Assembly (NCBI RefSeq): GCF_013376095.1
Contig: NZ_JAAMFN010000017.1
Coordinates: 1 to 64,000 of the forward strand
Direction: 5' to 3'
Length of the DNA stretch: 64,000 bases
From: Arthrobacter sp. SDTb3-6
GTDB taxonomy: Bacteria > Actinomycetota > Actinomycetes > Actinomycetales > Micrococcaceae
The translations under genes and the position numbers were made by a program. The notes under the pieces were generated by a model, which searched no databases, was not told the DNA's origin, and worked only from the letters and a program-made list of their open reading frames with translations. Positions 1 to 53,318 of this stretch are shown here, in pieces; the first letter of the stretch is position 1; each line of letters opens with the position of its first letter.

Positions 1-32
1 TTTTCGGCCGAATTTTTGGCCGATTTCTGCAA

Positions 33-38567: not shown

Positions 38568-39554
38568 ATGGAAATGCCAAGCTGCTGCAGTCCGGGCCGC
38601 GGGCAGGCCGTGCCGGAAACGCATGGCGTCCTGCCGGCACCCGTTCCCGCCGCGCGGGCCGCCGGCCCGGAATCGGTCCACGACGACGTCCTGGTCCCGG
38701 CGGGGACGTTCGCCATGGGCGACCCCTTCGACGAGGGCTACCCGGCCGACGGCGAGACGCCCGTCCACCAGGTCAGCATCTCCGCCTTCCGCATCGACGC
38801 CACCACCGTCACCAACGCCCGGTTCGCCGCCTTCATCAACGCCACCGGCTACCGCACCGACTCCGAAGCCTACGGCACCTCCGCCGTGTTCCACCTCGCC
38901 GTCCAGGCAGACCAACGCGACATCCTGGGCACGGCCGCCGGCACACCATGGTGGCTCAACATCCGCGGCGCCGACTGGGCCCACCCCGCCGGGCCGAAAT
39001 CCACCTGGCACGACATCCCGGACCACCCCGTGGTGCAGGTCTCCCACACCGACGCACTGGCCTACTGCGCGTGGGCCGGGCGGTCCCTGCCCACCGAGGC
39101 CCAGTGGGAATACGCGGCCCGCGGCGGCCTGCCCCAGGCCCGCTACCCCTGGGGCAACGAACTCCACGGACTGGCCGCGGACGGCACCAGAGTCCATCAT
39201 TGCAACATTTGGCAGGGCGCCTTCCCCACCGAAAACACCGGCGACGACGGTTTCCTTACCACCGCCCCCGTGCGCAGCTTCGCACCCAACGGGTACGGGC
39301 TCTTCCAAACGAGCGGCAACGTCTGGGAATGGTGCGCCGACTGGTTCCTGCCCAAGTACTACAAAACCTGCCACGGCCAGGGCACCCTGACCGACCCGCC
39401 CGGGCCCACCATCGGCCGCGGCCGCGTCATGCGCGGCGGCTCCTACCTCTGCCACGACTCCTACTGCAACCGCTACCGCCTCGCCGCCCGCAGCCACAAC
39501 TCCCCCGAATCAGCCAGCGCCAACTGCGGCTTCAGAACCACAACAACCGCCTAA
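38568..39554 (+). CDS. Formylglycine-generating enzyme (sulfatase-modifying)
   Basis: The enzyme oxidises the Cys of CxPxR in sulfatases to formylglycine using copper and oxygen. The 328-residue product has the family core GTFAMGDPFDEGYPADGETP, NIWQGAFPTENTGDDGF, NVWEWCADWF and the active-site pair Cys295/Cys300 in GSYLCHDSYCNRYR, closely similar to actinobacterial FGEs. The N-terminus MEMPSCCSPGRG carries its own CxPxR-like motif (Cys7 to Arg11). ATG 38568 has GAGG 6 nt upstream. It would mature the sulfatase at 30727-32334. Confidence 0.95.
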   Translation: MEMPSCCSPGRGQAVPETHGVLPAPVPAARAAGPESVHDDVLVPAGTFAMGDPFDEGYPADGETPVHQVSISAFRIDATTVTNARFAAFINATGYRTDSEAYGTSAVFHLAVQADQRDILGTAAGTPWWLNIRGADWAHPAGPKSTWHDIPDHPVVQVSHTDALAYCAWAGRSLPTEAQWEYAARGGLPQARYPWGNELHGLAADGTRVHHCNIWQGAFPTENTGDDGFLTTAPVRSFAPNGYGLFQTSGNVWEWCADWFLPKYYKTCHGQGTLTDPPGPTIGRGRVMRGGSYLCHDSYCNRYRLAARSHNSPESASANCGFRTTTTA

Positions 39555-39605
39555 CCAATGCTGCTTGGCGCAGGGGCAGCACCCCCGGCCACGGGCCACT
39601 TCTTG

Positions 39606-39633
39606 TTCGTTATCTGAATCAGAAGTTCCAATA
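39606..39633. promoter_or_regulatory. Candidate IclR operator, copy A (upstream of iclR)
   Basis: The site reads TTCG-n-TAT-n-TGAA-n5-AGTTC-n-AATA. The same 20 fixed positions recur at 52244-52271, upstream of the FAD monooxygenase. The pattern is a pseudo-palindrome (TATYTGAAY, five bases, RGTTCYAATA) of IclR-operator size. A possible -10 (TATAGG, about 39632-39637) overlaps its right end, which suggests autorepression. Confidence 0.6.
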
Positions 39634-39707
39634 TAGGATGAATGTGAAATGTGGCAGCAACCACAAGCGCCGGCAGCCCGCCGCCGGCCACTGATTAGGA
39701 CGGCATA

Positions 39708-40436
39708 GTGAGCTCAGCTTCAGCAGACGGCACCCCGGCCAAAACCCCGGCGCATTCACAAACCTTGTCGCGCGGCATCCGCGCGCTGGAAATCCTGGCC
39801 GAAGCCCAGTCTCCCATGACCATTGCCGAGCTGTCCGCCGCACTGGGCGTGCACCGCTCCATCGCCTACCGGATCCTGCGCACCCTGGAGGACCACTCGC
39901 TGCTGATGCGGGACGACGCCGGGCGCGTCCAGGCCGGACCGGGGCTGGCGGCACTGGCCCGCGGCGTCAATCGCAACCTGCAGACGGCGGCCCTGCCGGA
40001 ACTGACGGAACTGGCCAATGAACTGGACATGACCACCTTCATCGCGGTCTGGGACCACCGCGCGTCGGTCACCCTCCTGACCGTGGAGCCGCGCCATTCG
40101 GGGGCCACCCTGGCCCAGCGTCCGGGCACGCGCCACTCCTTTAGTTCCGGCGCGCCCGGCATCGCCATCCAGTCCGCCATCAGCGAGGACACTTGGGAGC
40201 GGCTGGCACCGGGCCTGCCCTACCGCCCGGAAGCCCGCGCCGCCAGGGCCGCCGGATTCGCCACGAGCCACGACGAGGTCCTGCCCGGAGTCGCCGCCAT
40301 CGCCGCCCCCATCCACATTCCCGGCGGCATGCCGGCCGCCATCTGCGCCATCTCCCTCGGCCCCAGCACCGACCCCGCATCCATCGGCGCCCGGCTCGCC
40401 GCCAGCGCCCACGTCATCGAGGCTCAGCTCCAGTAG
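39708..40436 (+). CDS. IclR-family transcriptional regulator
   Basis: The 242-residue product has an N-terminal winged helix (LSRGIRALEILAEAQSPMTIAELSAALGVHRSIAYRILRTLED, residues 19-62) and an IclR effector domain ending with GGMPAAICAISLGPS. GTG 39708 has TTAGGA 7 nt upstream. It precedes the homoprotocatechuate genes. A shared 28-bp site before iclR and before the monooxygenase suggests that it controls both. Confidence 0.9.
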   Translation: MSSASADGTPAKTPAHSQTLSRGIRALEILAEAQSPMTIAELSAALGVHRSIAYRILRTLEDHSLLMRDDAGRVQAGPGLAALARGVNRNLQTAALPELTELANELDMTTFIAVWDHRASVTLLTVEPRHSGATLAQRPGTRHSFSSGAPGIAIQSAISEDTWERLAPGLPYRPEARAARAAGFATSHDEVLPGVAAIAAPIHIPGGMPAAICAISLGPSTDPASIGARLAASAHVIEAQLQ

Positions 40437-40506
40437 GTGCCAGCCCGCGGCCGGAAATTCACCCCGCCCAAGGGCTTGACGTGACCGTCGCAACACGGAT
40501 ATGGTG

Positions 40507-40523
40507 ATCGTATACGATATCGT
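40507..40523. promoter_or_regulatory. GntR-type operator, overlapping palindromes
   Basis: ATCGTATACGAT (40507-40518) is a perfect 12-bp palindrome and matches the TNGTNNNACNA core of FCD-type GntR operators. It overlaps a second perfect palindrome, ACGATATCGT (40514-40523). They lie 65-80 bp before the FAH-RraA start, and a GntR gene is the second gene of the operon. Confidence 0.7.
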
Positions 40524-40588
40524 ACTTGATATTGGCGGCCGGTCCACCGGCCGCGGCAAGCCGTCAACTTCCATCCCAGGAGTGTTCC

Positions 40589-42058
40589 GTGGAACAAGTC
40601 ACAGCAGACACGCTCAAGCAGGCCGGCAAGGTCATCGCCGTCCATCTGGCGTACCAGTCCCGGGCGGACCAGCGCGGGCGCACCCCGGCAAACCCCTCGT
40701 ACTTCCTCAAGGCGTCGTCGTCCCTGAGCCTGAGCGGCTCCGACATTGAGCGCCCCGCCGGCTGCGAGCTGATGGCCTATGAGGGTGAGATCGCCCTGGT
40801 CATCGGCACGGCCGCCCGCCGCGTCAGCCCCGAGGAGGCCTGGTCCCACGTCGGGTACGTCACCGCCAGCAACGACCTGGGCATCTACGACATCAAGTAC
40901 GCGGACAAGGGCTCCAACGTCCGCTCCAAGTCCGGCGACGGCTTCACGCCCTTCGGCCCGGCCCTCATCCCGGCCGCCGACGTCGACCCGGCCGGCCTGC
41001 GCGTGCGCACCTGGCTCAACGGCGAACCCGTCCAGGACGACACCACGGCCGGCCTGATCTTCCCGTTCAGCCAAATCGTCGCGGACCTTTCCCAGCTCAT
41101 GACGCTGGAACCGGGCGACGTCATCCTCACCGGCACCCCCGCCGGTTCCTCGGTCGCCGTCCCCGGCGACGTCATCGAAGTTGAGGTTGACGCCCCCGCA
41201 GCCGGCTTGTCCACCGGGCGCCTGCGCACCACCGTCACACAGGGCACCGCGGAATTCGCCGCTTTCGGCAACCAGCCCAAGGTCTCCGACGCCGATCGCG
41301 AAGACGCCTGGGGCTCGGCCGAGGCTGCCGGCCTGACGCCGAAGGGCCTCAGCGCCGACCTCAAGCGCAAGCTGACCAGCGTGGGCACCGCCACGCTCAG
41401 CGCCCAGCTGCGCAAGCGCGGGCTGAACAACGTCAGCATCGACGGACTGAAGTCCACCCGCCCCGAACTGCGGATCGCCGGCACGGCCCGCACCCTTCGC
41501 TACGTGCCCAACCGCGAAGACCTGTTCAAGACGCACGGCGGCGGCTACAACGCCCAGAAGCGCATCATCAACACGCTCAACGACGGCGAAGTCCTGGTCA
41601 TGGAGGCCCGCGGCGAGCCCGGCACCGGCACCGTCGGGGACATCCTGGCCCTGCGTGCACAGATCAATGGCGCCGCCGCCATCGTGACCGACGGCGGGGT
41701 CCGCGACGTTGCCGCCGTCGCCGCCCTGGACATGCCCACCTTCTTCACCGGAGCGCACCCCGCCGTCCTGGGCCGCAAGCACATCCCGTGGGACACCGAC
41801 CTGACCATCTCCTGCGGCGGCGCCACCGTGCAGCCCGGCGACATCATCGTCGGCGACTCGGACGGCGTCCTGGTGATTCCGCCGTCGTTGGCGGAGGAAG
41901 TGGCCGACGACGCCATCGTCCAGGAGCACCAGGAAACCTTCATCGCCGAAATGGTCTCCGAAGGCAACAGCGTGGAGGGCCTGTACCCGATGAACGCGGC
42001 GTGGAAGGCGAAGTTCAACGACTGGGCCGCCACGCATCCGAATCCCGCGGCGCAGTAA
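40589..42058 (+). CDS. Fumarylacetoacetate hydrolase-RraA fusion, HpaG-like
   Basis: The 489-residue product fuses two enzymes. Residues 1-225 are an FAH-type domain with metal ligands Glu65, Glu67 (AYEGEIAL) and Asp96, DKGSNVRSKSGDGFTPFGPAL and LTGTPAGSSV. Residues about 255-465 are RraA/aldolase-like (AGTARTLRYVPNREDLF, GDILALRAQINGAAAIVTDGGVRD). In this context it should decarboxylate and isomerise 5-oxopent-3-ene-1,2,5-tricarboxylate. E. coli HpaG is instead two FAH repeats. GTG 40589 has AGGAG 6 nt upstream. The stop overlaps gntR (TAATG). Confidence 0.85.
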   Translation: MEQVTADTLKQAGKVIAVHLAYQSRADQRGRTPANPSYFLKASSSLSLSGSDIERPAGCELMAYEGEIALVIGTAARRVSPEEAWSHVGYVTASNDLGIYDIKYADKGSNVRSKSGDGFTPFGPALIPAADVDPAGLRVRTWLNGEPVQDDTTAGLIFPFSQIVADLSQLMTLEPGDVILTGTPAGSSVAVPGDVIEVEVDAPAAGLSTGRLRTTVTQGTAEFAAFGNQPKVSDADREDAWGSAEAAGLTPKGLSADLKRKLTSVGTATLSAQLRKRGLNNVSIDGLKSTRPELRIAGTARTLRYVPNREDLFKTHGGGYNAQKRIINTLNDGEVLVMEARGEPGTGTVGDILALRAQINGAAAIVTDGGVRDVAAVAALDMPTFFTGAHPAVLGRKHIPWDTDLTISCGGATVQPGDIIVGDSDGVLVIPPSLAEEVADDAIVQEHQETFIAEMVSEGNSVEGLYPMNAAWKAKFNDWAATHPNPAAQ

Positions 42059-42747
42059 TGAGCCCCGAGACAGCCAGCAAGTCGGAGCGGGCGTACGCCG
42101 CCATCAAGGAGAAGATCCTTGGCGGCGGGTACACGCCCGGCTACCGGCTGGTGCTGGCCAAGCTGGCCGAGGACCTCGGGTTCTCCGTGGTGCCGGTCCG
42201 CGAGGCCGTCCGCCGGCTCGAGGCTGAAGGCTTTATCACCTTCGAGCGCAACGTGGGGGCCACGGTGGCCGGGATCGATCCCACCGAGTACCTGTACACG
42301 ATGCAGACGCTCAGCATTGTGGAAGGCGCCGCCACGGCACTCTCGGCACCGCTGATCGGCCCGGAGGACATCGCCCGGGCCCGGGGCGTCAACGCGGCCA
42401 TGCGCGAGTGCCTGGAACATTTTGACCCGGTCCGCTTCACGGCGTTGAACCTGGAATTCCACAGCGTCCTGTTTGAAAACTGCCCCAACCCGCACATCCT
42501 GGACATGGTCCACCGCGGCTGGAACCGGCTGCAGGCGCTGCGGTCCTCCACGTTCAACTACGTTCCCGGCCGGGCCAAGGAATCCGTTGCCGAACACGAG
42601 GCCCTGCTGAAACTGCTGGAAAACGGGGCCGATGCCGACACGGTGGAACGCGCCGCCCGCGCCCACCGCGCGGCCACCCTGGACGCCTACCTGGCCCGCG
42701 GCACACCAGAACAGCAGGCCCGCATGCCGCTGTCCCCCACTTACTAA
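42058..42747 (+). CDS. GntR-family (FCD) transcriptional regulator
   Basis: The 229-residue product has a GntR winged helix (AYAAIKEKILGGGYTPGYRLVLAKLAEDLGFSVVPVREAVRRLEAEG) and an FCD effector domain with the metal-type HSVLFENCPNPHI and EHEALL segments. ATG 42058 overlaps the preceding stop as TAATG. Its operator is probably the palindrome pair at 40507-40523, so it would autoregulate the homoprotocatechuate operon. Confidence 0.92.
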   Translation: MSPETASKSERAYAAIKEKILGGGYTPGYRLVLAKLAEDLGFSVVPVREAVRRLEAEGFITFERNVGATVAGIDPTEYLYTMQTLSIVEGAATALSAPLIGPEDIARARGVNAAMRECLEHFDPVRFTALNLEFHSVLFENCPNPHILDMVHRGWNRLQALRSSTFNYVPGRAKESVAEHEALLKLLENGADADTVERAARAHRAATLDAYLARGTPEQQARMPLSPTY

Positions 42748-42783
42748 AATCCCACAGAACACCTGAAGAAAAGGAATTTTCCC

Positions 42784-44313
42784 ATGGCTGAGCACTACAT
42801 CCCGGACAACCTGCCCACACACCTGCAGCACTACATTGGCGGCAAGCTCGTCGACTCGATCGACGGCGACACCTTCGACGTGCTGGATCCGGTCACGAAC
42901 AAGCCCTACATCAAGGCCGCCTCCGGCAAGGTCGCCGACGTCGCCGCCGCGGTTGCCGCCGCCAAGGACGCCTTCGAGAACGGCCCCTGGCCGGGCATGC
43001 TGCCCCGCGACCGCTCCCGCGTGCTGCACAAGATCGCGGACATCGTCGAGACCCGCGGCCGGGAACTGGCCGAGTTCGAATGCTTCGATACCGGCCTGCC
43101 CATCACGCAGGCACTCGGGCAGGCCCGCCGCGCAGCGGAGAACTTCCGCTTCTTTGCCGACCTGATCGTGGCCCAGCACGACGACGCCTTCAAGGTTCCG
43201 GGCCGGCAGGCCAACTACGTCAACCGCAAGCCGATTGGCGTCGCCGGCCTCATCACGCCGTGGAACACCCCCTTCATGCTGGAGTCCTGGAAGCTGGGCC
43301 CGGCGCTGGCCACCGGCAACACCGTGGTACTCAAGCCGGCCGAGTTCACCCCGCTTTCCGCGTCCCTGTGGCCCGGCATCTTCGAGGAGGCCGGCCTGCC
43401 GGCAGGCGTGTTCAACATCGTGCACGGCTTCGGTGAGGAAGGCTACGCCGGCGACTCACTGGTCAAGCACCCGGATGTCCCGCTCATCTCCTTCACCGGC
43501 GAGTCCCGCACCGGCCAGATCATCTTCGGCAACGCCGCACCCTACCTGAAGGGCCTGTCGATGGAGCTGGGCGGCAAGTCCCCCGCCGTCGTCTTCGCCG
43601 ACGCCGACCTGGAAGCCGCCATCGACGCGACGATCTTCGGCGTCTTCTCCCTCAACGGCGAACGCTGCACCGCCGGCTCGCGCATCCTGGTCGAACGCAG
43701 CATCTACGACGAATTCGTGGAGCGCTACTCCGCCCAGGCCAAGCGCGTGAAGGTTGGCCTGCCCCACGACGACGCCACCGAGGTCGGCGCGCTGGTCCAC
43801 CCCGAGCACTTCGAGAAGGTCATGTCCTACGTGGAGATCGGCAAGACCGAAGCCCGCCTGACCGCCGGCGGCGGCCGCCCCGCGGAGTTCCCGGAAGGCA
43901 ACTTCATCCAGCCCACCGTCTTTGCCGACGTCGCCCCGGATGCCCGGATCTTCCAGGAGGAGATCTTCGGCCCGGTCGTCGCCATCACCCCGTTCGACAC
44001 GGACGAGGAGGCCCTTGAGCTGGCCAACAACACCAAGTACGGACTGGCCGCCTACATCTGGACGAACGACCTCAAGCGGGCACACAACTTCGCCCAGGAC
44101 GTTGAAGCGGGCATGGTGTGGCTGAACTCCAACAACGTCCGCGACCTGCGCACCCCGTTCGGCGGCGTGAAGGCCTCCGGCCTGGGCCACGAGGGCGGCT
44201 ACCGCTCCATCGATTTCTACACGGACCAGCAGGCCGTCCACATCAATCTCGGCGCCGTCCACAACCCCGTCTTCGGCAAGGCCGAGGACGCCGCCGAAGT
44301 GATCGACGCCTAA
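42784..44313 (+). CDS. hpaE: 5-carboxymethyl-2-hydroxymuconate-semialdehyde dehydrogenase
   Basis: This NAD-dependent enzyme oxidises the ring-cleavage product of homoprotocatechuate. The 509-residue product has ITPWNTPFMLESWK, the base in SMELGGKSPAVVF, the nucleophile Cys in LNGERCTAGSRI, and EIFGPVVAITPF. Length and its place directly before hpaD match HpaE. An AAGGAA ribosome site precedes ATG 42784. Confidence 0.93.
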   Translation: MAEHYIPDNLPTHLQHYIGGKLVDSIDGDTFDVLDPVTNKPYIKAASGKVADVAAAVAAAKDAFENGPWPGMLPRDRSRVLHKIADIVETRGRELAEFECFDTGLPITQALGQARRAAENFRFFADLIVAQHDDAFKVPGRQANYVNRKPIGVAGLITPWNTPFMLESWKLGPALATGNTVVLKPAEFTPLSASLWPGIFEEAGLPAGVFNIVHGFGEEGYAGDSLVKHPDVPLISFTGESRTGQIIFGNAAPYLKGLSMELGGKSPAVVFADADLEAAIDATIFGVFSLNGERCTAGSRILVERSIYDEFVERYSAQAKRVKVGLPHDDATEVGALVHPEHFEKVMSYVEIGKTEARLTAGGGRPAEFPEGNFIQPTVFADVAPDARIFQEEIFGPVVAITPFDTDEEALELANNTKYGLAAYIWTNDLKRAHNFAQDVEAGMVWLNSNNVRDLRTPFGGVKASGLGHEGGYRSIDFYTDQQAVHINLGAVHNPVFGKAEDAAEVIDA

Positions 44314-44346
44314 CCCCCACCCCAACCGCTCGAAGGAGAGAACACC

Positions 44347-45444
44347 ATGACCGACTTCATCCCCACCCCGTCCATCCCGGCCCCGGACATTGTCCGCTGC
44401 GCCTACATGGAAATGGTGGTCACCGACCTGGCCAAGTCCCGCGAGTTCTACGTCGACGTGCTGGGCCTGCACGTGACCGAGGAAGACGGGAACACCATCT
44501 ACCTGCGCTCCCTGGAGGAGTTCATCCACCACAACCTGGTGCTGCGCCAGGGCCCGGTGGCCGCCATTGCCGCCGCCGCCTTCCGGGTCAAGTCCCCGGC
44601 CGAGGTGGATGCCGCCGAGGCCTACTACAAGGAGCTGGGCTGCCGCACCGAGCGCCGCAAGGACGGCTTCGTCAAGGGCATCGGCGACGCCGTCCGCGTG
44701 GAGGACCCGCTGGGCTTCCCCTACGAATTCTTCTACGAAACCACCCACGTGGAACGCCTCACCCGCCGCTACGACCTCTACTCCGCCGGCGAACTGGTCC
44801 GCCTGGACCACTTCAACCAGGTCACCCCGGACGTCCCCCGCGGCCGCAAGTACCTCGAGGACCTGGGCTTCCGCGTCTCCGAGGACATCAAGGACTCCGA
44901 CGGCGTCACCTACGCCGCCTGGATGCACCGCAAGCAGACCGTCCACGACACCGCCCTGACCGGCGGCGACGGCCCCCGCATGCACCACATTGCCTTCGCC
45001 ACGCACGAAAAGGCGAACATCATCGCCATCTGCGACAAGATGGGCGCCCTGCGCATCTCCGACCGGATCGAGCGCGGCCCCGGCCGCCACGGCGTCTCCA
45101 ACGCCTTCTACCTGTACATCCTGGACCCGGACGACCACCGCATCGAGATCTACACGCAGGACTACTACACCGGCGACCCGGACAACCCCACCGTCACCTG
45201 GGACGTGCACGACAACCAGCGCCGCGACTGGTGGGGCAACCCCGTCGTCCCTAGCTGGTACACGGAGGCCTCCCTGGTGCTGGACCTGGACGGCAAGCCG
45301 CAGCCCGTCATCAAGCGCACCGACGCGTCCGAAATGGCGGTCACGGTCGGCGCTGACGGCTTCTCCTACACCCGCGGCCCGGGCGACGCGATGAACGGCG
45401 ACCCGGCCGAGGAGATCGGCTTCAAGATGGGCACCCAGCTCTAG
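44347..45444 (+). CDS. hpaD: Homoprotocatechuate 2,3-dioxygenase, MndD-type
   Basis: This extradiol dioxygenase opens 3,4-dihydroxyphenylacetate next to the diol. The 365-residue VOC-fold product has metal ligands His155 (RLDHFNQV), His214 (MHHIAF) and Glu267 (HRIEIYTQ), at the same numbers as the Arthrobacter Mn(II) enzyme MndD. That enzyme is closely similar in sequence, so Mn(II) is the likely metal here. AAGGAGAG precedes ATG 44347. It sits between hpaE and hpaH. Confidence 0.96.
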   Translation: MTDFIPTPSIPAPDIVRCAYMEMVVTDLAKSREFYVDVLGLHVTEEDGNTIYLRSLEEFIHHNLVLRQGPVAAIAAAAFRVKSPAEVDAAEAYYKELGCRTERRKDGFVKGIGDAVRVEDPLGFPYEFFYETTHVERLTRRYDLYSAGELVRLDHFNQVTPDVPRGRKYLEDLGFRVSEDIKDSDGVTYAAWMHRKQTVHDTALTGGDGPRMHHIAFATHEKANIIAICDKMGALRISDRIERGPGRHGVSNAFYLYILDPDDHRIEIYTQDYYTGDPDNPTVTWDVHDNQRRDWWGNPVVPSWYTEASLVLDLDGKPQPVIKRTDASEMAVTVGADGFSYTRGPGDAMNGDPAEEIGFKMGTQL

Positions 45445-45531
45445 CCCATGCGTGCCGTCGCCGGCGGGGCATTTGCCCCGCCGGCTCCCGGCACGCACCG
45501 CTCGGCCTTTAAAACGTTAGAGGAGACATAC

Positions 45532-46317
45532 ATGCTTGACGATGACACCATTGCCGCCATTGCCGATGAACTGGTCGATGCCGGAAAGAGCCGCGTGCCC
45601 GTTCCCCGGCTGACGGCGCGGTACCCGGAGATGACGGTGGAGGATTCCTACCGGGTGCAAAAGCTGTGGAGGGAGCGCTGCGAAGCGCAGGGGCGGGTGC
45701 TGGGCGGCCACAAGATCGGCCTGACGTCCAAGGCCATGCAGTACGCCACGGGCATCACGGAGCCGGACTACGGGATCATCTTCAAGGACATGATCCTGGA
45801 AAACGGCTGCACGGTTGAGTGGAAGCAGTATTCACACCCGCGCATCGAGGTGGAGCTGGCGTTCCTGCTCAAGGAGGACATCAGCGGCCCCGACGCCACG
45901 CTCTTTGACGTGCTGCGCGCCACCGAATACGTGGTGCCGGCGCTGGAAATCCTCGACTCAAGGATCGAAATGGAGGGCCGGACCATTGTGGACACCATCA
46001 GCGACAACGCCGCCATGGGCGCCATGGTGGTGGGCGGCACCCCGGTGAAGCCGGACGCCCTGGACCTGCGCTGGGTCTCGGCCATCCTGTTCAAGAACCA
46101 GGCCATCGAGGAGACCGGGGTGGCGGCCGGCGTGCTGAACCATCCGGCGACGGGCGTGTCCTGGCTGGCCAACAAGATCGCCCCGCACGGCGACTCGCTC
46201 AAGGGCGGCGAGCTCATCCTCGCCGGCTCCTTCACCCGCCCCATGTGGGTCAACGAGGGCGACACCGTCTTTGCCGACTATGGAAAGCTGGGGACCATCA
46301 CATGCCAGTTCGTGTAA
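45532..46317 (+). CDS. hpaH: 2-oxo-hept-4-ene-1,7-dioate hydratase
   Basis: The 261-residue product belongs to the MhpD/HpaH hydratase family: GGHKIGLTSKAMQYATGI, the metal-site segment HPRIEVELAFLL and ATEYVVPALEILDSRI. It adds water to 2-oxohept-4-enedioate before aldol cleavage. AGAGGAG at 45519-45525 supports ATG 45532. Its 3' end overlaps hpaI by 16 bp. Confidence 0.93.
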   Translation: MLDDDTIAAIADELVDAGKSRVPVPRLTARYPEMTVEDSYRVQKLWRERCEAQGRVLGGHKIGLTSKAMQYATGITEPDYGIIFKDMILENGCTVEWKQYSHPRIEVELAFLLKEDISGPDATLFDVLRATEYVVPALEILDSRIEMEGRTIVDTISDNAAMGAMVVGGTPVKPDALDLRWVSAILFKNQAIEETGVAAGVLNHPATGVSWLANKIAPHGDSLKGGELILAGSFTRPMWVNEGDTVFADYGKLGTITCQFV

Positions 46318-47111
46318 CGCCGGACCCGTCGTTCAAGGACGCCCTGGCCGGGGCCGGGCGGCCGCTGGCCGGCATGTGGGTGTGCTCCGGCAGCCCGCTG
46401 GTGGCCGAGATCTGTGCCGGCGCCGGGCTGGACTGGCTGCTCATCGACGCCGAACACAGCCCCAACGGGCTCGAAGGCATCCTCGCGCAGCTGCAGGCGG
46501 TCAACGGCTACCCCGTCACCGCCGTCGTGCGCCCGCCCGTCAACGACACCGTGTTGATCAAGCAGTACCTTGACCTGGGCGTGCAGTCGCTGCTGATCCC
46601 CATGGTCCACACGGCCGACGACGCTGCTGCCGCCGTCTCCGCCGCCCACTACCCGCCGCGCGGCGTCCGGGGCGTCGGCTCGGCGCTGGCCCGCTCGGCC
46701 CGGTGGAACCGCATCCCGGACTATCTGGCCCGGGCCTCGGAGACCATCACCGTGATCGTCCAGATCGAGTCCCGCGAGGCCGTGGACAACGTGTCGGAGA
46801 TTCTCGCCGTGGACGGGATCGACGCCGTCTTCATCGGCCCCTCCGATCTCGCCGCCTCCATGGGCGTATTGGGAGCGCAGGAACACCCTGACGTCGTGGC
46901 CGCCGTCGAGCATTGCATCAAGGCGGCCAAGGCGGCCGGCAAGCCGGTGGGCGTGAACGCCTTTGCCGAGGCCACCGCGCGCCGCTACCTGGCCGCCGGC
47001 GTGGACTTCATCCTGGTGGGCGCCGACGTGGCCATGCTGGCGCGCGGCAGCGAAGCCCTCGCCGCCGGCTATGTCCCGGCGGCCGGCACCGGACCCACCG
47101 CCAGCTACTGA
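46302..47111 (+). CDS. hpaI: 4-hydroxy-2-oxo-heptane-1,7-dioate aldolase
   Basis: This class II aldolase splits 4-hydroxy-2-oxoheptanedioate to pyruvate and succinate semialdehyde. The 269-residue product shows the HpaI active-site residues in IDAEHSPNG, VVRPPVND, VQIESREAVDN and FIGPSDLAASMG. It overlaps hpaH by 16 bp. The next gene oxidises its succinate-semialdehyde product. Confidence 0.93.
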   Translation: MPVRVTPDPSFKDALAGAGRPLAGMWVCSGSPLVAEICAGAGLDWLLIDAEHSPNGLEGILAQLQAVNGYPVTAVVRPPVNDTVLIKQYLDLGVQSLLIPMVHTADDAAAAVSAAHYPPRGVRGVGSALARSARWNRIPDYLARASETITVIVQIESREAVDNVSEILAVDGIDAVFIGPSDLAASMGVLGAQEHPDVVAAVEHCIKAAKAAGKPVGVNAFAEATARRYLAAGVDFILVGADVAMLARGSEALAAGYVPAAGTGPTASY

Positions 47112-47213
47112 CCAGCGCTGGTTGAGCCCGTCGAAACCCCGCTTGTCGAAACCCCCGCTTGTGGAAACCCCCGCTTGTGGAAACCAAGGTCTCGACAAGC
47201 TCGACCAGCGTCA
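47112..47213. repeat. 16-bp near-tandem repeats flanked by inverted arms
   Basis: The gap between hpaI and the dehydrogenase holds four near-copies of GCTTGTSGAAACCCCC from about 47131 to 47184. The outer sequence CGCTGGTTGAGCCCGTCGAA on the left and TCTCGACAAGCTCGACCAGC on the right are near inverted copies. Similar GGTCTCGACAAGCTCGACC elements are, to my knowledge, widespread in Micrococcaceae. It lies inside the operon and could lower expression of later genes. Confidence 0.7.
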
Positions 47214-47252
47214 ACTCCCGCCCCACACACACAATCTTCAAGGAGCTCACGC

Positions 47253-48731
<1,479 letters not shown>

Positions 48732-48749
48732 ACAACGGGCTGCCGCCAC

Positions 48750-48783
48750 AACAGCGCCGTCCCCGGCCGGGGGCAGCGCTGTT
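48750..48783. terminator. Hairpin after succinate-semialdehyde dehydrogenase
   Basis: AACAGCGC (48750-48757) pairs with GCGCTGTT (48776-48783), with an inner CCCCGGCCGGGG stem. It ends the main hpa operon; no strong T-tract follows. Confidence 0.6.
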
Positions 48784-48850
48784 CCCGAGTGCGCTGCGGT
48801 AGCGTGGAAGGACACTCGGCCCGGGCATTCCGGGCCCGGAAGGAGCAGAA

Positions 48851-49141
48851 GTGTCCATTGTTGTCATCAACGCCTTGAAGGTCCCGGTCGAGGCCGGATC
48901 CGAACTCGAGTCGCGCTTCGCCGCGCGCAAGCACTCGGTGGACGGCGCCCCCGGGTTCGAGGGGTTCCAGCTCCTGCGCCCCGTCGCCGGGGAGGACCGC
49001 TACTTCGTCTACACGCAATGGGCCACCCGTGAAGACTTTGAGAACTGGCGCGCCCAGCGCTCCGGCCACGACCACTCCGCCCAGGCCCCGGTGGCCAGCG
49101 GCATGGACCTGCTCGAGTTCGACGTCGTGGACCTCGGGTAG
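48851..49141 (+). CDS. MhuD-like heme-degrading monooxygenase (ABM fold)
   Basis: The 96-residue product closely resembles mycobacterial MhuD, with APGFEGFQLLRPVAGEDRYFVYTQW and the heme-site residues Asn7, Trp66 and His75 at the same numbers. MhuD-type enzymes break down heme and release iron without free CO. GTG 48851 has GGAG upstream. It is separated from the hpa operon by a hairpin and followed by another, so it appears to be a single-gene unit. Activity is inferred from residues. Confidence 0.82.
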   Translation: MSIVVINALKVPVEAGSELESRFAARKHSVDGAPGFEGFQLLRPVAGEDRYFVYTQWATREDFENWRAQRSGHDHSAQAPVASGMDLLEFDVVDLG

Positions 49142-49170
49142 CCCCGGGGCGGCGCACCGCGCGCTGCCGG

Positions 49171-49199
49171 CCCTGCGCCACTTCCCACGTGGCGCAGGG
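49171..49199. terminator. Hairpin after MhuD-like gene
   Basis: Perfect 11-bp arms (49171-49181 and 49189-49199) enclose a 7-nt loop 30 bp after the stop codon. Confidence 0.65.
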
Positions 49200-49273
49200 T
49201 CCACGTGACGGCATTGCGCAGCTTTAAGGGCCGCTGCCGGAATATTGCCCGTCCGGCGCCGGTTGCCCCGAAT

Positions 49274-50167
49274 ATGAGCCAAAACACACAGGCCGCCGTG
49301 GCGGCCACCATCGACATCAAGGACCTCGGGACTGTCCAGCGGCTGGGCTACGGTGCCATGCGGATCACCGGCGACGGCATCTGGGGCGAGCCCGCCGACC
49401 ATGCGGCGGCAGTCGCCACGCTCCGCAGGGCCGTGGAGCTGGGCGTCGACTTCATCGACACCGCCGACTCCTACGGCCCGGACGTCTCCGAGCGCATCAT
49501 CGCCGAGGCACTCCACCCCTATCCGGCGGGGCTGCACATTGCCACCAAGGCCGGCCAGGCCCGACCTGCGCCGCACAAGTGGGTTCCGCTGGGCCGTGCC
49601 GAGTACCTCCGCCAGCAGGTGGAGCTGAGCCTGCGCAAGCTCAAGGTGGACACCCTGGACCTGTTCCAGCTGCACCGCATCGACCCCAAGGTGCCGGTGG
49701 AGGAGCAGTTCGGGACCCTGCGCGCCCTCCAGGACGAAGGCAAGGTCAGGGCCCTGGGCCTCTCCCAGGTGTCCGTCGCGGAGCTGGAAACCGCGGCCGG
49801 GTACTTCACCGTGGCCAGCGTGCAAAACCGCTACAACCTCACCGACAGGTCCTCCGAGGATGTGCTGGACTACGCGGAGGCACACGGCATTGCCTTCATC
49901 CCGTGGGCCCCGATCTCGGCAGGAATGCTGGCCGGGGCCGGCGGTGCTGTCGAGGAGGCGGCGCAGCGGCTGGGTGCCACGCCATCCCAGGTGGCCCTGG
50001 CCTGGCTGCTCCAGCGCTCCCCCGCCATGCTTCCGATCCCCGGTACGTCATCCCCGGCGCACTTGGAAGAAAACCTTGGCGCGGCCGCCCTGCGGCTGGA
50101 CGGGGAAACGTTCGCCGCCCTGGACGCCGCCGGCCGTGCCGAACATGAGCGGGCGGGCACCAAATAA
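49274..50167 (+). CDS. Aldo/keto reductase
   Basis: The 297-residue NADPH-dependent reductase has the catalytic set Asp-Tyr-Lys-His in [17 protein letters not shown] and LFQLHRID, and the cofactor segment [16 protein letters not shown]. The family reduces aldehydes and ketones; substrate unknown. ATG 49274 was chosen because homologous sequence starts about there. A strong terminator follows, separating it from the convergent monooxygenase. Confidence 0.88.
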
Positions 50168-50240
50168 GGCAATGCGTGCCCGCCCGCCTTGTCGGGGCGC
50201 CGCCCGGAACCGCCCGTAACCAGCCGGGGGCGCAGGCGGC

Positions 50241-50284
50241 AAAGGTACGGCCCCGCAGTGGCATCACTGCGGGGCCGTACCTTT
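50241..50284. terminator. Strong bidirectional terminator
   Basis: Perfect 20-bp arms (50241-50260 and 50265-50284) with a 4-nt loop lie between convergent genes. AAA and TTT at the outer ends provide U-tracts in both directions. Confidence 0.9.
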
Positions 50285-50298
50285 GCTGCGAAACGCTG

Positions 50299-52191
50299 TT
50301 ACACGCGGGCGCCCGAGTGGATCTGTGCGAAGAACTCGCCCAGCTCCGCAGTGGCGGTCAGCGGCAGGATGTCCGCCACGTACTGGTCCGGGCGGACGAC
50401 GACGACAACGCCGTCGCGGGACAGCCCGCGCACATCAAAGATGTCATCGCCTTCCACAATGCCGAACACCTTTTCAAGGTTGGTGAGCCGGAACGGCCCC
50501 ACCACGGGCTTGAACACGTCGGGCACGGCGTTGATGTCGATGTCCTCGTGCTTCTGCTGGTAGATGACCTTCGCATCAAACCAGGCGTCGGCGTCGAGCC
50601 CTTCGGGAGTGGCCGCCAGCGGCGATTCCGGGGCGTTTGCGAGCCACTGCGCCAGGTCCGTGGTGGGCGAGGCGGCCCCGGGCTGGGCCTGGTCGGCGAA
50701 GACGTAGATGCGCCAGCGGCCGTCGGCCGTGGCCAGGTGGCCCAGGTGCAGGGGGTTGGTGTCGCAGACGCGGGAGACGCGTGCGGACTTGAAACGCTTG
50801 CCGAGCGGGAACCCGGTGGCCAGCTCCTGGCGGGCGTGTGAGGCCGTGAGCATCGAGCTCGTGTACTGCGTCATGAACCCTGCCGGGAACTCGGCGGTGG
50901 CCACGTAGAAGTCCTCCAGCTCCGACGGGTCGGCGAACTCCTCGGGCTTCTTGGCCATCATGGTGGACCATTCCTTGTCAAAGTCGATGAGGTTCTTCGC
51001 CACCACCTGGCGCTCGGTGGAGTAGGTGTCCAGCAGCGCGGCGGGGCTGCGTCCTTCAAGGACGTGGCCGAGCTTCCAGCCGAGGTTGAAGCCGTCCTGC
51101 ATGGAGACGTTCATGCCCTGGCCGGCCTTGGCGCTGTGCGTGTGGCAGGCGTCGCCGGTGATGAAGACGCGGGGGCTGCGCGTGCCGCGGTCCTGCGCCA
51201 GGACGTCGTCGAACCGGTCGGTGAGGCGGTGGCCCACTTCGTAGACGCTGTGCCAGGCAACGCTGCGCACATCCACGGTGTACGGGCGCATGATCTCGTT
51301 GGCCTTCGCGATGATCTGCTCGATGCTGGTCTTGCGCACGGCGCCGCGGTCGCCCTCGGGCACCTCGCCCAGGTCCACGTACATGCGGAAGAGGTAGCCG
51401 CCCTCGCGGGGGATCAACAGGATGGATCCGCCGTCGTGCGACTGGATGGCGCACTTGGTGCGGATGTCCGGGAAGTCGGTCTGGGCCAGCACGTCCATGA
51501 CGCCCCAGGCATGGTTGGCCTGGTCGCCGCCCATGGTGCAGCCGATCGCCGAGCGGACCTTGCTGCGGGCCCCGTCGCAGCCAACGACGTACTTGGCGTG
51601 GACGATGCGCTCGGTGCCCTCGTCCTCGCCGGCGCTGCGCACCAGCGTGACCTTGACGGGGTAGTCGCCCTCGCCGGTGACCTCCAGGCCCTGGAATTCC
51701 CAGCCGAAGTCGGGGACCAGGCGGGTGGGCGAGTTTTTGGCGACCTCGGCAAAGTAGTCGAGCACGCGGGCCTGGTTGACGATCAGGTGCGGGAATTCGC
51801 TGATGCCGGTCGTGTCGTCGACGGCGCGGCCGCCGCGCACAATCCGGGTCGGTTCCTTTTCGTCCGGGCGCCAGAAGTTCATTTCCGTGAGCCAGTAGGC
51901 CTCTGCGGTGATGTGCTCGGCAAAGCCGAACGCCTGGAAGGTCTCGACGCTGCGGGCCTGGATGCCGTCGGCCTGGCCGAGCTCCAGCCGGCCACCGCGA
52001 CGCTCCACGAGGCGCGTGGTGATGTCCGGGAACTGGGAGAGCTGGGCTGCGGTGAGCATGCCGGCCGGCCCCGAGCCCACGATCAGCACGTCCACCTCAT
52101 CCGGAAGCTCCTCGGGGCGGTCAATGCCGACACCGGCGGCCGGCTTGACCCTCGGGTCACCGGATACGTATCCATGGTGGTGGAACTGCAC
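50299..52191 (-). CDS. FAD-dependent aromatic hydroxylase, MobA/phenol hydroxylase-like
   Basis: The 630-residue product is a single-component flavin hydroxylase: N-terminal VDVLIVGSGPAGMLTAAQL, the middle motif YVVGCDGARSKVRSAIG, FITGDACHTHSAKAGQGMNVSMQD, and a C-terminal thioredoxin-like domain (RWRIYVFAD ... VVVVRPDQYVAD). It is strongly similar to 3-hydroxybenzoate 4-hydroxylase. In this island it likely makes 3,4-dihydroxyphenylacetate from 3- or 4-hydroxyphenylacetate, since no HpaBC is present. GTG 52191 has GAGGAG upstream. It shares an operator with iclR. Confidence 0.88.
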   Translation of the reverse strand: MQFHHHGYVSGDPRVKPAAGVGIDRPEELPDEVDVLIVGSGPAGMLTAAQLSQFPDITTRLVERRGGRLELGQADGIQARSVETFQAFGFAEHITAEAYWLTEMNFWRPDEKEPTRIVRGGRAVDDTTGISEFPHLIVNQARVLDYFAEVAKNSPTRLVPDFGWEFQGLEVTGEGDYPVKVTLVRSAGEDEGTERIVHAKYVVGCDGARSKVRSAIGCTMGGDQANHAWGVMDVLAQTDFPDIRTKCAIQSHDGGSILLIPREGGYLFRMYVDLGEVPEGDRGAVRKTSIEQIIAKANEIMRPYTVDVRSVAWHSVYEVGHRLTDRFDDVLAQDRGTRSPRVFITGDACHTHSAKAGQGMNVSMQDGFNLGWKLGHVLEGRSPAALLDTYSTERQVVAKNLIDFDKEWSTMMAKKPEEFADPSELEDFYVATAEFPAGFMTQYTSSMLTASHARQELATGFPLGKRFKSARVSRVCDTNPLHLGHLATADGRWRIYVFADQAQPGAASPTTDLAQWLANAPESPLAATPEGLDADAWFDAKVIYQQKHEDIDINAVPDVFKPVVGPFRLTNLEKVFGIVEGDDIFDVRGLSRDGVVVVVRPDQYVADILPLTATAELGEFFAQIHSGARV

Positions 52192-52243
52192 AAGAATCTC
52201 CTCGCTGCAAGGTGGCGGCGGCTGCGCCACCAAAAATCGTTAA

Positions 52244-52271
52244 TTCGCTATTTGAACATGCAGTTCTAATA
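52244..52271. promoter_or_regulatory. Candidate IclR operator, copy B (upstream of monooxygenase)
   Basis: The site matches copy A (39606-39633) at all 20 fixed positions of TTCG-n-TAT-n-TGAA-n5-AGTTC-n-AATA. Here the core is a near-perfect palindrome: TATTTGAAC and GTTCTAATA with a 5-nt centre. It lies 53-80 bp upstream of the monooxygenase GTG. A second inverted repeat, GCACAC-n11-GTGTGC (52274-52296), follows and could serve the divergent LysR. Confidence 0.65.
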
Positions 52272-52409
52272 GTGCACACTAAGCATAATTGTGTGCGTCA
52301 ACTCACGCAAGCCTGTGAGCTGAACGTCGCCAGGGCGGACGGGTGTTTCGGCGGTTCCAGGGGACGTTGGCGCCGTGTACGGGCCCTGCGGTGCGGATAG
52401 GATTCGACC

Positions 52410-53318
52410 ATGTTCCGTTACACCCTCCGGCAGGTGCTCCATTTTGTCGCCATCGCCGACCACGGCTCGATCCGGGCGGCCGCAGAGGCAACCCACGTCT
52501 CCCAGGCCGGGCTGTCGCTGGCCTTGACGGAGCTGGAAAAGGCCCTCGGCGTCCAGCTGGCGGTCCGGCAGAAGGCGAAGGGCATCACGCTGACCAGCGC
52601 GGGGCGCAGGTTCCTTTCCGAGGCCCGGATGCTGCTGCGCCAGGCCGACGAGCTCCAGGCCACCACGGCCGAGTCCCCCGACATGCTGGCCGGGCCGCTG
52701 GACATCGGCTGCTACAGCACGCTGGCGGCCTTTTGGGTGCCGCCCATTACGGCCGGTTTCGCCGCAGCCAACCCGCACCTGGTCCTGTCCATTACTGAAG
52801 GCCCGCCGCGACGTCTCCAGCTGGACATGCTCGAGGGCAGGCTCGACGCCGTCCTGACCCACACGCGGCACGTCATCGACGGGGCCCAGTACAAGGTTGT
52901 CAGGGGCGGCCGGCCCTATGTACTGGTGGGTGCCACACACCGCCTGGCAGGGCGTTCCGCCGTCCGGCTGGCGGAGCTGGCCGATGACGACATGGTCCTG
53001 CTGGACATCCCCACAGTGCGTGAAAACCAGCTGCCGAACCTGCGTGCGTCCGGCCTGGACCCGAAAATTGCCTGGCGGTCCACCAGCTATGAGGCCGTCC
53101 GCGGCATGGTGGCCCGTGGCCTGGGCTACACGGTGTTGGTCCAGCGCCCGCCGCACAACGCCAGCTATGAGGGCCTGCCGGTCATCCCCCTGCCCATCGA
53201 GGGTCCCATCGGCCACAGCGACATCTGCTTTGCCTTCCCTGCCAAGCAACAGCCCGGCCGGAAGCTCCAGGCACTCATCGACTACTGCGCCGCCTACACC
53301 CCGCCGGTCAGCCCGTAA
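52410..53318 (+). CDS. LysR-type transcriptional regulator
   Basis: The 302-residue product has the LysR winged helix (MFRYTLRQVLHFVAIADHGSIRAAAEATHVSQAGLSLALTELEKALG) and a substrate-binding effector domain from about residue 90. It is divergent from the FAD hydroxylase and 263 bp from the next operon. An inverted repeat GCACAC-n11-GTGTGC at 52274-52296 could be its site. Target genes are not proven. Confidence 0.92.
   Translation: MFRYTLRQVLHFVAIADHGSIRAAAEATHVSQAGLSLALTELEKALGVQLAVRQKAKGITLTSAGRRFLSEARMLLRQADELQATTAESPDMLAGPLDIGCYSTLAAFWVPPITAGFAAANPHLVLSITEGPPRRLQLDMLEGRLDAVLTHTRHVIDGAQYKVVRGGRPYVLVGATHRLAGRSAVRLAELADDDMVLLDIPTVRENQLPNLRASGLDPKIAWRSTSYEAVRGMVARGLGYTVLVQRPPHNASYEGLPVIPLPIEGPIGHSDICFAFPAKQQPGRKLQALIDYCAAYTPPVSP

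What the first reader, a model, noticed from the sequence alone, without database searches (positions are those of the whole stretch)
39606..52271. Shared 28-bp operator links iclR and a hydroxylase 12.6 kb away
TTCG-n-TAT-n-TGAA-n5-AGTTC-n-AATA is found upstream of iclR (39606-39633) and upstream of the FAD hydroxylase (52244-52271) with all 20 fixed positions identical; the second copy is a near-perfect palindrome (TATTNGAAC-n5-GTTCNAATA). I noticed no other copy in the window. This suggests that the IclR protein autoregulates and controls the first step of the pathway, while GntR controls the ring-cleavage operon.
Basis: partly seen in the sequence, partly recalled or inferred. Interest (0 to 1): 0.7.

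Follow-up and report, generated by a model that had tools for sequence, protein, structure and literature searches.

The report
IclR operator pair controlling hydroxyphenylacetate breakdown
Two matching DNA stretches in a soil bacterium look like conserved switches for one regulator protein (IclR), one in front of the regulator's own gene and one in front of an aromatic-ring hydroxylase; the set of genes it controls seems not to have been described, but the switch is of a well-known kind.

Summary
The two sites are the only matches in the 4.3-Mb genome at up to 3 mismatches. All 36 hydroxylase promoters scanned carry it, and a matrix trained only on them finds it upstream of 77 of 94 iclR orthologues. 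At up to 3 mismatches it is found in 0 of 48 family genomes lacking the iclR orthologue (37 of them with the hydroxylase) and in 99 of 149 with it. A lysR like the window's adjoins the hydroxylase in 3 of 36 loci. A promoter-like pair ends 4 nt before the window's hydroxylase operator, which suggests repression. In 25 of 94 iclR loci hpaB lies divergently, 24 behind a flavin reductase gene, so the regulon is probably hydroxyphenylacetate entry into the homoprotocatechuate pathway. A different conserved element, ATCGTATACGAT, precedes the ring-cleavage operon. New regulon, known kind; no binding was measured.

The parts
39605..39639 (+). IclR operator 1: GTTCGTTATCTGAAT-cagaa-GTTCCAATATAGGAT, tandem dyads, upstream of iclR
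39708..40436 (+). iclR, regulator proposed to bind both operators (HTH_IclR 48.2 bits, cut-off 22; IclR_C 25.0 bits, cut-off 24)
40476..40505 (+). promoter-like TTGACG-18-TATGGT of the ring-cleavage operon
40507..40518 (+). ATCGTATACGAT, conserved palindrome, possible GntR (FCD) operator
40589..42058 (+). FAH/RraA fusion (start GTG at 40589)
42058..42747 (+). gntR (FCD type), start overlaps the FAH/RraA stop
42784..44313 (+). hpaE, 5-carboxymethyl-2-hydroxymuconate semialdehyde dehydrogenase (636.9 bits, just under the equivalog cut-off 638.35)
44347..45444 (+). hpaD, homoprotocatechuate 2,3-dioxygenase (over equivalog cut-off)
45448..46317 (+). hpaH hydratase (over equivalog cut-off; ORF start, the true start may be later)
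46245..47111 (+). hpaI aldolase (best family, 322.4 bits, below the equivalog cut-off 368.8; ORF start)
47175..48731 (+). succinate-semialdehyde dehydrogenase-like (below cut-off)
50299..52191 (-). FAD hydroxylase of the MobA / phenol 2-monooxygenase type (start GTG at 52191 after GAGGAG)
52243..52277 (-). IclR operator 2: GTGCACTATTAGAAC-tgcat-GTTCAAATAGCGAAT in hydroxylase sense
52282..52287 (-). proposed -10 hexamer TATGCT of the hydroxylase promoter
52305..52310 (-). proposed -35 hexamer TTGCGT of the hydroxylase promoter
52410..53318 (+). lysR, divergent neighbour; rival binder, not supported

Best explanation
The two sites are operators of the IclR-family protein encoded at 39708-40436. 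Each is a tandem pair of 15-bp dyads (GTTC-N7-GAAC) with centres 20 bp apart, fit for a dimer of dimers. At the hydroxylase the operator starts 4 nt after the proposed -10 hexamer and covers the predicted transcription start and the first transcribed bases, so bound IclR most likely blocks transcription until a hydroxyphenylacetate-type inducer releases it; at iclR it mediates autoregulation. The regulon is the entry into the homoprotocatechuate pathway: the MobA-like hydroxylase here, and in relatives also a flavin reductase-hpaB unit and a metabolite/H+ symporter. The ring-cleavage operon has its own promoter-like sequence with a different conserved element, probably for GntR. Shown by sequence: the sites, their conservation, their dependence on iclR presence, the position of the promoter-like pair. 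Inferred: binding, sign of control, inducer, hydroxylase substrate, GntR assignment.
For: (1) The two sites only, in 4.3 Mb, at up to 3 mismatches. (2) Genus: 15 of 23 genomes (own included) have a match, reversed control 0 of 23; of 21 distinct sites 15 are directly upstream of the hydroxylase (one in each of the 15 genomes), 4 upstream of iclR, 2 at neither. (3) Matrix from hydroxylase promoters only (36 of 36): 77 of 94 iclR upstreams above the 99th percentile of 940 shuffles, 72 of 94 above every shuffle. (4) 197 genomes: operator in 99 of 149 with iclR and 0 of 48 without, p=1.2e-18; among 178 with the hydroxylase 93 of 141 and 0 of 37, p=6.9e-15; within-genus z=5.4. (5) Matrix check on hand-picked promoters: 20 of 20 with iclR that the pattern missed have it; of 20 without iclR 19 do not, 1 has a weak relic. 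(6) 30 of 30 loci fetched from the family list are flanked by iclR, hydroxylase or an MFS gene. (7) Layout as in PMC8222616. (8) TTG-16..19-TAnnnT upstream of the operator in 35 of 36 hydroxylase loci, 3.3% of shuffles. (9) hpaB divergent from iclR in 25 of 94 loci, operator in 25 of 25.
Against: 17 of 94 iclR upstreams have no operator by the 99th-percentile rule and 22 of 94 by the stricter one: two are iclR genes directly behind the hydroxylase, several have another conserved element (one of these, L162, is even counted in the 77), and six from one group score far below any site although four genomes of that group have the site at an MFS gene. 50 of 149 iclR-bearing genomes have no match at up to 3 mismatches; the 20 of these checked all had diverged sites, but they were the ones with the closer hydroxylases, so the more distant genera are untested. 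One iclR-less genome keeps a weak site (L209). Site 1 is the weaker copy (two of four arms degenerate; 28.1 against 46.1). The proposed hydroxylase hexamers match only 7 of 12 and a stricter promoter scan of the region found none; the looser rule was set after seeing the alignment. Genomes are related, so p-values overstate independence. No binding, footprint or expression data.
Confidence: 0.88

Rival explanations
1. IclR binds both sites but activates the hydroxylase (as PcaU or PobR do, recalled) instead of repressing it.
For: IclR-family regulators of aromatic catabolism include dual ones (GenR 'activates and represses', a title in the reference list of PMC8222616). The proposed promoter is weak (7 of 12), and weak promoters are common at activated genes (recalled).
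Against: The promoter-like pair lies upstream of the operator in 35 of 36 hydroxylase loci, with the operator 4 nt (18 loci) or 14-18 nt (17 loci) after the -10; an activator site would be expected upstream of the promoter.
Confidence: 0.22
2. The divergent LysR (52410-53318) binds site 2 as a LysR divergent-promoter site, and the likeness to site 1 is secondary.
For: Site 2 lies between the hydroxylase and lysR, the usual LysR arrangement (recalled).
Against: A lysR of 88% identity or more lies within 1.5 kb upstream of the hydroxylase in 3 of 36 loci (L002, L007, L062; a fourth, L064, has a 32% one), yet 36 of 36 have the operator; operator presence follows iclR.
Confidence: 0.02
3. GntR (42058-42747) binds both sites.
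For: GntR is in the same cluster.
Against: A different element, ATCGTATACGAT, is conserved at the operon that contains gntR, 13 of 13; the operator under study is not found in genomes without iclR. Presence and absence of gntR was not tested.
Confidence: 0.01
4. Chance likeness or a dispersed repeat.
For: The pattern was fitted to the two copies after the fact.
Against: Only two copies in the genome, conserved at the same two promoters in other genera.
Confidence: 0.01

Closest known systems
IclR-family tandem operators, group 1 subgroup TGTYCRYW3RYGRACA (Suvorova and Gelfand 2021, PMC8222616)
   Same: 15-bp GTYC-N7-GRAC core; tandem sites 18-22 nt centre to centre in 94 of 181 orthologous groups; aromatic metabolism over-represented in this subgroup
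   Different: The main text does not contain the word Arthrobacter; its supplement was not readable here, so a listing there is not excluded
GenR of Corynebacterium glutamicum (ATTCC-N7(5)-GGAAT in Table 1 of PMC8222616)
   Same: IclR-type, actinobacterial, aromatic catabolism, inverted-repeat motif written with 7- (5-) base spacing
   Different: Half-site ATTCC, not GTTC; 3-hydroxybenzoate and gentisate genes, not homoprotocatechuate entry
MobA 3-hydroxybenzoate hydroxylase (PDB 2DKH)
   Same: Best solved relative of the hydroxylase, E 4.6e-189 over residues 15-636
   Different: Here the gene is associated with HpaD (p=2e-9) more strongly than with protocatechuate dioxygenase alpha (p=0.04), which has no match in the own genome at E 1e-30
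HpaB 4-hydroxyphenylacetate 3-monooxygenase (TIGR02309)
   Same: Same presumed product, and behind the same operator in 25 iclR loci
   Different: Unrelated enzyme with a separate flavin reductase; not next to iclR in this window

Membership tests
IclR-family regulator | N-terminal HTH_IclR domain over the Pfam cut-off | tested here: met
   48.2 bits vs 22
IclR-family regulator | C-terminal IclR_C effector domain | tested here: met
   25.0 bits vs 24, marginal; no single stretch passes on its own
IclR-family tandem operator (group 1) | GTYC-N7-GRAC palindrome | tested here: met
   Consensus GTtCGnTaaTaGAAC / GTTCaAATAtcGAAC at hydroxylase (34 distinct sites), GTTCTATAnTTGAAC / gTtCnnATAtAGaAC at iclR (55 distinct sites); the seven inner bases fit the published RYW3RY only in part
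IclR-family tandem operator (group 1) | centres 18-22 nt apart | tested here: met
   20 nt: 15-bp dyads with a 5-bp spacer
IclR-family tandem operator (group 1) | protein binds the DNA | not testable with these tools
   needs gel shift or footprint
MobA / PRK08294 FAD hydroxylase | NCBIfam subfamily cut-off; FAD_binding_3 and Phe_hydrox_dim domains | tested here: met
   1042.8 bits vs 560; both Pfam domains
MobA / PRK08294 FAD hydroxylase | 3-hydroxybenzoate as substrate | not testable with these tools
   co-occurrence argues for a hydroxyphenylacetate instead
GntR (FCD) regulation of the ring-cleavage operon | conserved palindrome at the operon promoter | tested here: met
   13 of 13 aligned promoters within 1 mismatch; with its flank the only match in the own genome at up to 3 mismatches
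GntR (FCD) regulation of the ring-cleavage operon | element depends on this GntR | not tested
   no presence/absence test was run

The most novel reading that the evidence does not exclude
The IclR is an undescribed hydroxyphenylacetate sensor that coordinates two unrelated ring hydroxylases, HpaB and a MobA-like single-component flavoenzyme that is really a (3- or 4-) hydroxyphenylacetate hydroxylase making homoprotocatechuate. Lineages without iclR also lack the operator, and there the hydroxylase has come under ring-cleavage control: it lies behind hpaI in the same direction in 10 of 20 iclR-less loci read against 0 of 20 iclR-bearing ones, and is divergent from FAH/RraA in 3 of 20 (also in 2 of the 20 iclR-bearing ones).
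Probability: 0.5. Interest if true: 0.5.

Novelty: new member of a known kind. Interest (0 to 1): 0.38.

Why it matters
It gives an unnamed actinobacterial IclR a precise operator, a small regulon and a testable inducer class, and it suggests a function for a MobA-like enzyme that annotation would call phenol or 3-hydroxybenzoate hydroxylase. The joint absence of iclR and its operator in several genera is a natural test of which regulator owns which operator, and of regulatory rewiring.

Tried and rejected
LysR as binder: rejected, a close relative of the window's lysR adjoins the hydroxylase in 3 of 36 loci. GntR as binder: rejected, a different element is conserved at its operon. Hydroxylase as feeder of protocatechuate: disfavoured, no PcaG match in the own genome at E 1e-30 and weak co-occurrence. 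One central GAAC-N5-GTTC palindrome: rejected, the outer arms are about as conserved as the inner ones. Two sites in two similar genomes (L013, L025) are next to none of the window's genes; in L013 the site falls inside a long open frame (L025 not read); taken as chance. On the + strand the simple scan named no promoter for iclR. HpaB as the usual hydroxylase: 60 of 197 genomes have an HpaB-family gene at E 1e-15 against 178 with the FAD hydroxylase at E 1e-250; the own genome has three HpaB-family genes on other contigs. My first reading that hpaB itself is the next gene was wrong: a flavin reductase gene (Flavin_Reduct, 117.3 bits, tested in L101) lies between operator and hpaB in 24 of 25 loci. 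Papers: searches in an open-licence library listed no report that I recognised as this regulon; apart from PMC8222616 and PMC3534580 I saw listings only.
Full report
Observation. The pattern is present at 39606-39633 and 52244-52271 with all fixed positions matched, and 100 shuffles give none. In the own genome (4.3 Mb, 144 contigs) these are the only two matches at up to 3 mismatches, with none for the reversed control. The copies agree at 21 of 28 bases. Site 1 ends 68 bases before the iclR start at 39708. Site 2 lies between the hydroxylase (-) and a lysR (+).

Extent and anatomy. In relatives the conserved unit is 35 bp: two 15-bp dyads GTTC-N7-GAAC separated by 5 bp, centres 20 bp apart. 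The outer arms carry about as much information as the inner ones. PMC8222616 (outline and abstract, found passages, results part 1 and discussion read) reports the IclR motif TGTYCRYW3RYGRACA, whose core is GTYC-N7-GRAC, with aromatic metabolism over-represented in its regulons, and tandem sites 18-22 nt apart in 94 of 181 orthologous groups, explained by tetramer binding. The operator is of the kind expected for an IclR protein.

Conservation. In the genus 15 of 23 genomes, the own one included, have a match and the reversed control none. Of 21 distinct sites 15 are directly upstream of the hydroxylase, 4 upstream of iclR and 2 at neither. A matrix trained on hydroxylase promoters only (36 of 36 deduplicated loci) was run on 94 deduplicated iclR upstream regions: 77 exceed the 99th percentile of 940 block shuffles and 72 exceed every shuffle. 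Many of the 94 are closely related. Across 197 family genomes 99 have the operator at up to 3 mismatches; the reversed control has one hit in all. The 30 loci fetched from that list are all flanked by iclR, the hydroxylase or an MFS gene.

Which protein binds. iclR orthologues are absent (best E above 1e-40) from 48 of 197 genomes, and none of the 48 has the operator at up to 3 mismatches; 99 of 149 with iclR do (p=1.2e-18). Among 178 genomes with the hydroxylase (E at or below 1e-250) the counts are 93 of 141 against 0 of 37 (p=6.9e-15). Nine genera hold both states, seven of them with any operator, and the stratified z is 5.4 (lists copied by hand). The genomes are related, so the p-values overstate the number of independent events. 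Twenty hydroxylase promoters from iclR-bearing genomes that the pattern missed all carry a diverged operator (scores 18 to 42); of twenty from iclR-less genomes nineteen do not (below -26) and one, L209, has a weak relic (9.4). Both sets were hand-picked from the closer hydroxylases. The hydroxylase directly precedes iclR in L057 and L134 and, by coordinates, in G052, G077, G098, G133, G146, G173 and G186. A lysR of 88% identity or more adjoins the hydroxylase in 3 of 36 loci. IclR is thus the best-supported binder.

How it works. A promoter-like pair TTG-16..19-TAnnnT lies just upstream of the operator in 35 of 36 hydroxylase loci, against 3.3% of shuffles; the rule was set after seeing the alignment. 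In 18 loci the operator starts 4 nt after the -10, in 17 it starts 14-18 nt after it. In the window the -35 is 52310-52305 and the -10 52287-52282; they match the consensus at 7 of 12, and a scan asking for 9 of 12 found nothing there. If this is the promoter, the operator covers the start of transcription, and repression is the likeliest mode (inferred). With the start at GTG 52191 the operator centre is 69 bases upstream of the start codon.

What it controls. HpaD (E at or below 1e-90) occurs in 180 and the hydroxylase in 178 of 197 genomes; both 172, hydroxylase only 6, HpaD only 8, neither 11 (p=2e-9). Association with protocatechuate dioxygenase alpha (128 of 197) is weaker (p=0.04), and the own genome has no match. 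In 25 of 94 iclR loci hpaB is divergent from iclR (TIGR02309 over cut-off, tested in L101), all 25 with the operator; in 24 of the 25 a flavin reductase gene in the direction of hpaB lies between operator and hpaB. In 47 loci the divergent neighbour is a gene like the symporter of L104 (TIGR00883 family, below its cut-off), 35 of them with the operator by the stricter rule. PMC3534580 (passages only) reports that Arthrobacter sp. Rue61a grows on 4-hydroxyphenylacetate and homoprotocatechuate but not on 3-hydroxybenzoate; whether that strain has this hydroxylase was not checked. The regulon is thus probably hydroxyphenylacetate entry. The hydroxylase's best solved relative is MobA, which by analogy suggests 3-hydroxyphenylacetate to homoprotocatechuate; this is inference.

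The ring-cleavage operon. Between iclR and FAH/RraA there is a promoter-like TTGACG-18-TATGGT followed by ATCGTATACGAT at 40507-40518, within 1 mismatch in 13 of 13 aligned FAH/RraA promoters, including loci where iclR is not the adjacent gene. The gntR gene overlaps the end of FAH/RraA. GntR control is likely but was not tested by presence and absence. Read-through from the iclR promoter is not excluded.

Limits. No binding, footprint or expression data exist here. The supplement of PMC8222616 could not be read, so a listing of this orthologous group there is possible. Literature searches cover open-licence papers only.

Noticed in passing
L151, L158, L162, L163, L166, L170, upstream of iclR: These iclR orthologues share another conserved element around ACCGACAGAACGGTCAGTT instead of the operator, possibly another regulator's site or a promoter.
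   Followed up: no
L124, L127, L130, just upstream of the iclR operator: A further GTTCTATATTTGAA-type dyad precedes the operator, suggesting longer arrays of IclR sites.
   Followed up: no
G076:C1:127242-127931 and G132:C25:33276-33959: These genomes have a second iclR homologue of 63% identity with its own operator upstream.
   Followed up: partly
window 52272-52300: A GCACAC...GTGTGC inverted repeat overlaps the proposed hydroxylase promoter; it is largely present also in genomes without the lysR.
   Followed up: partly
window 38568-39554: Formylglycine-generating-enzyme-like gene directly upstream of the iclR operator; it is not the nearest upstream gene in the other 93 iclR loci.
   Followed up: no
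L179, L180, L181, L183 (G134, G118, G078, G053): In one genus the operator is at a symporter-like MFS gene 46-77 kb from iclR, and iclR itself lacks it.
   Followed up: partly
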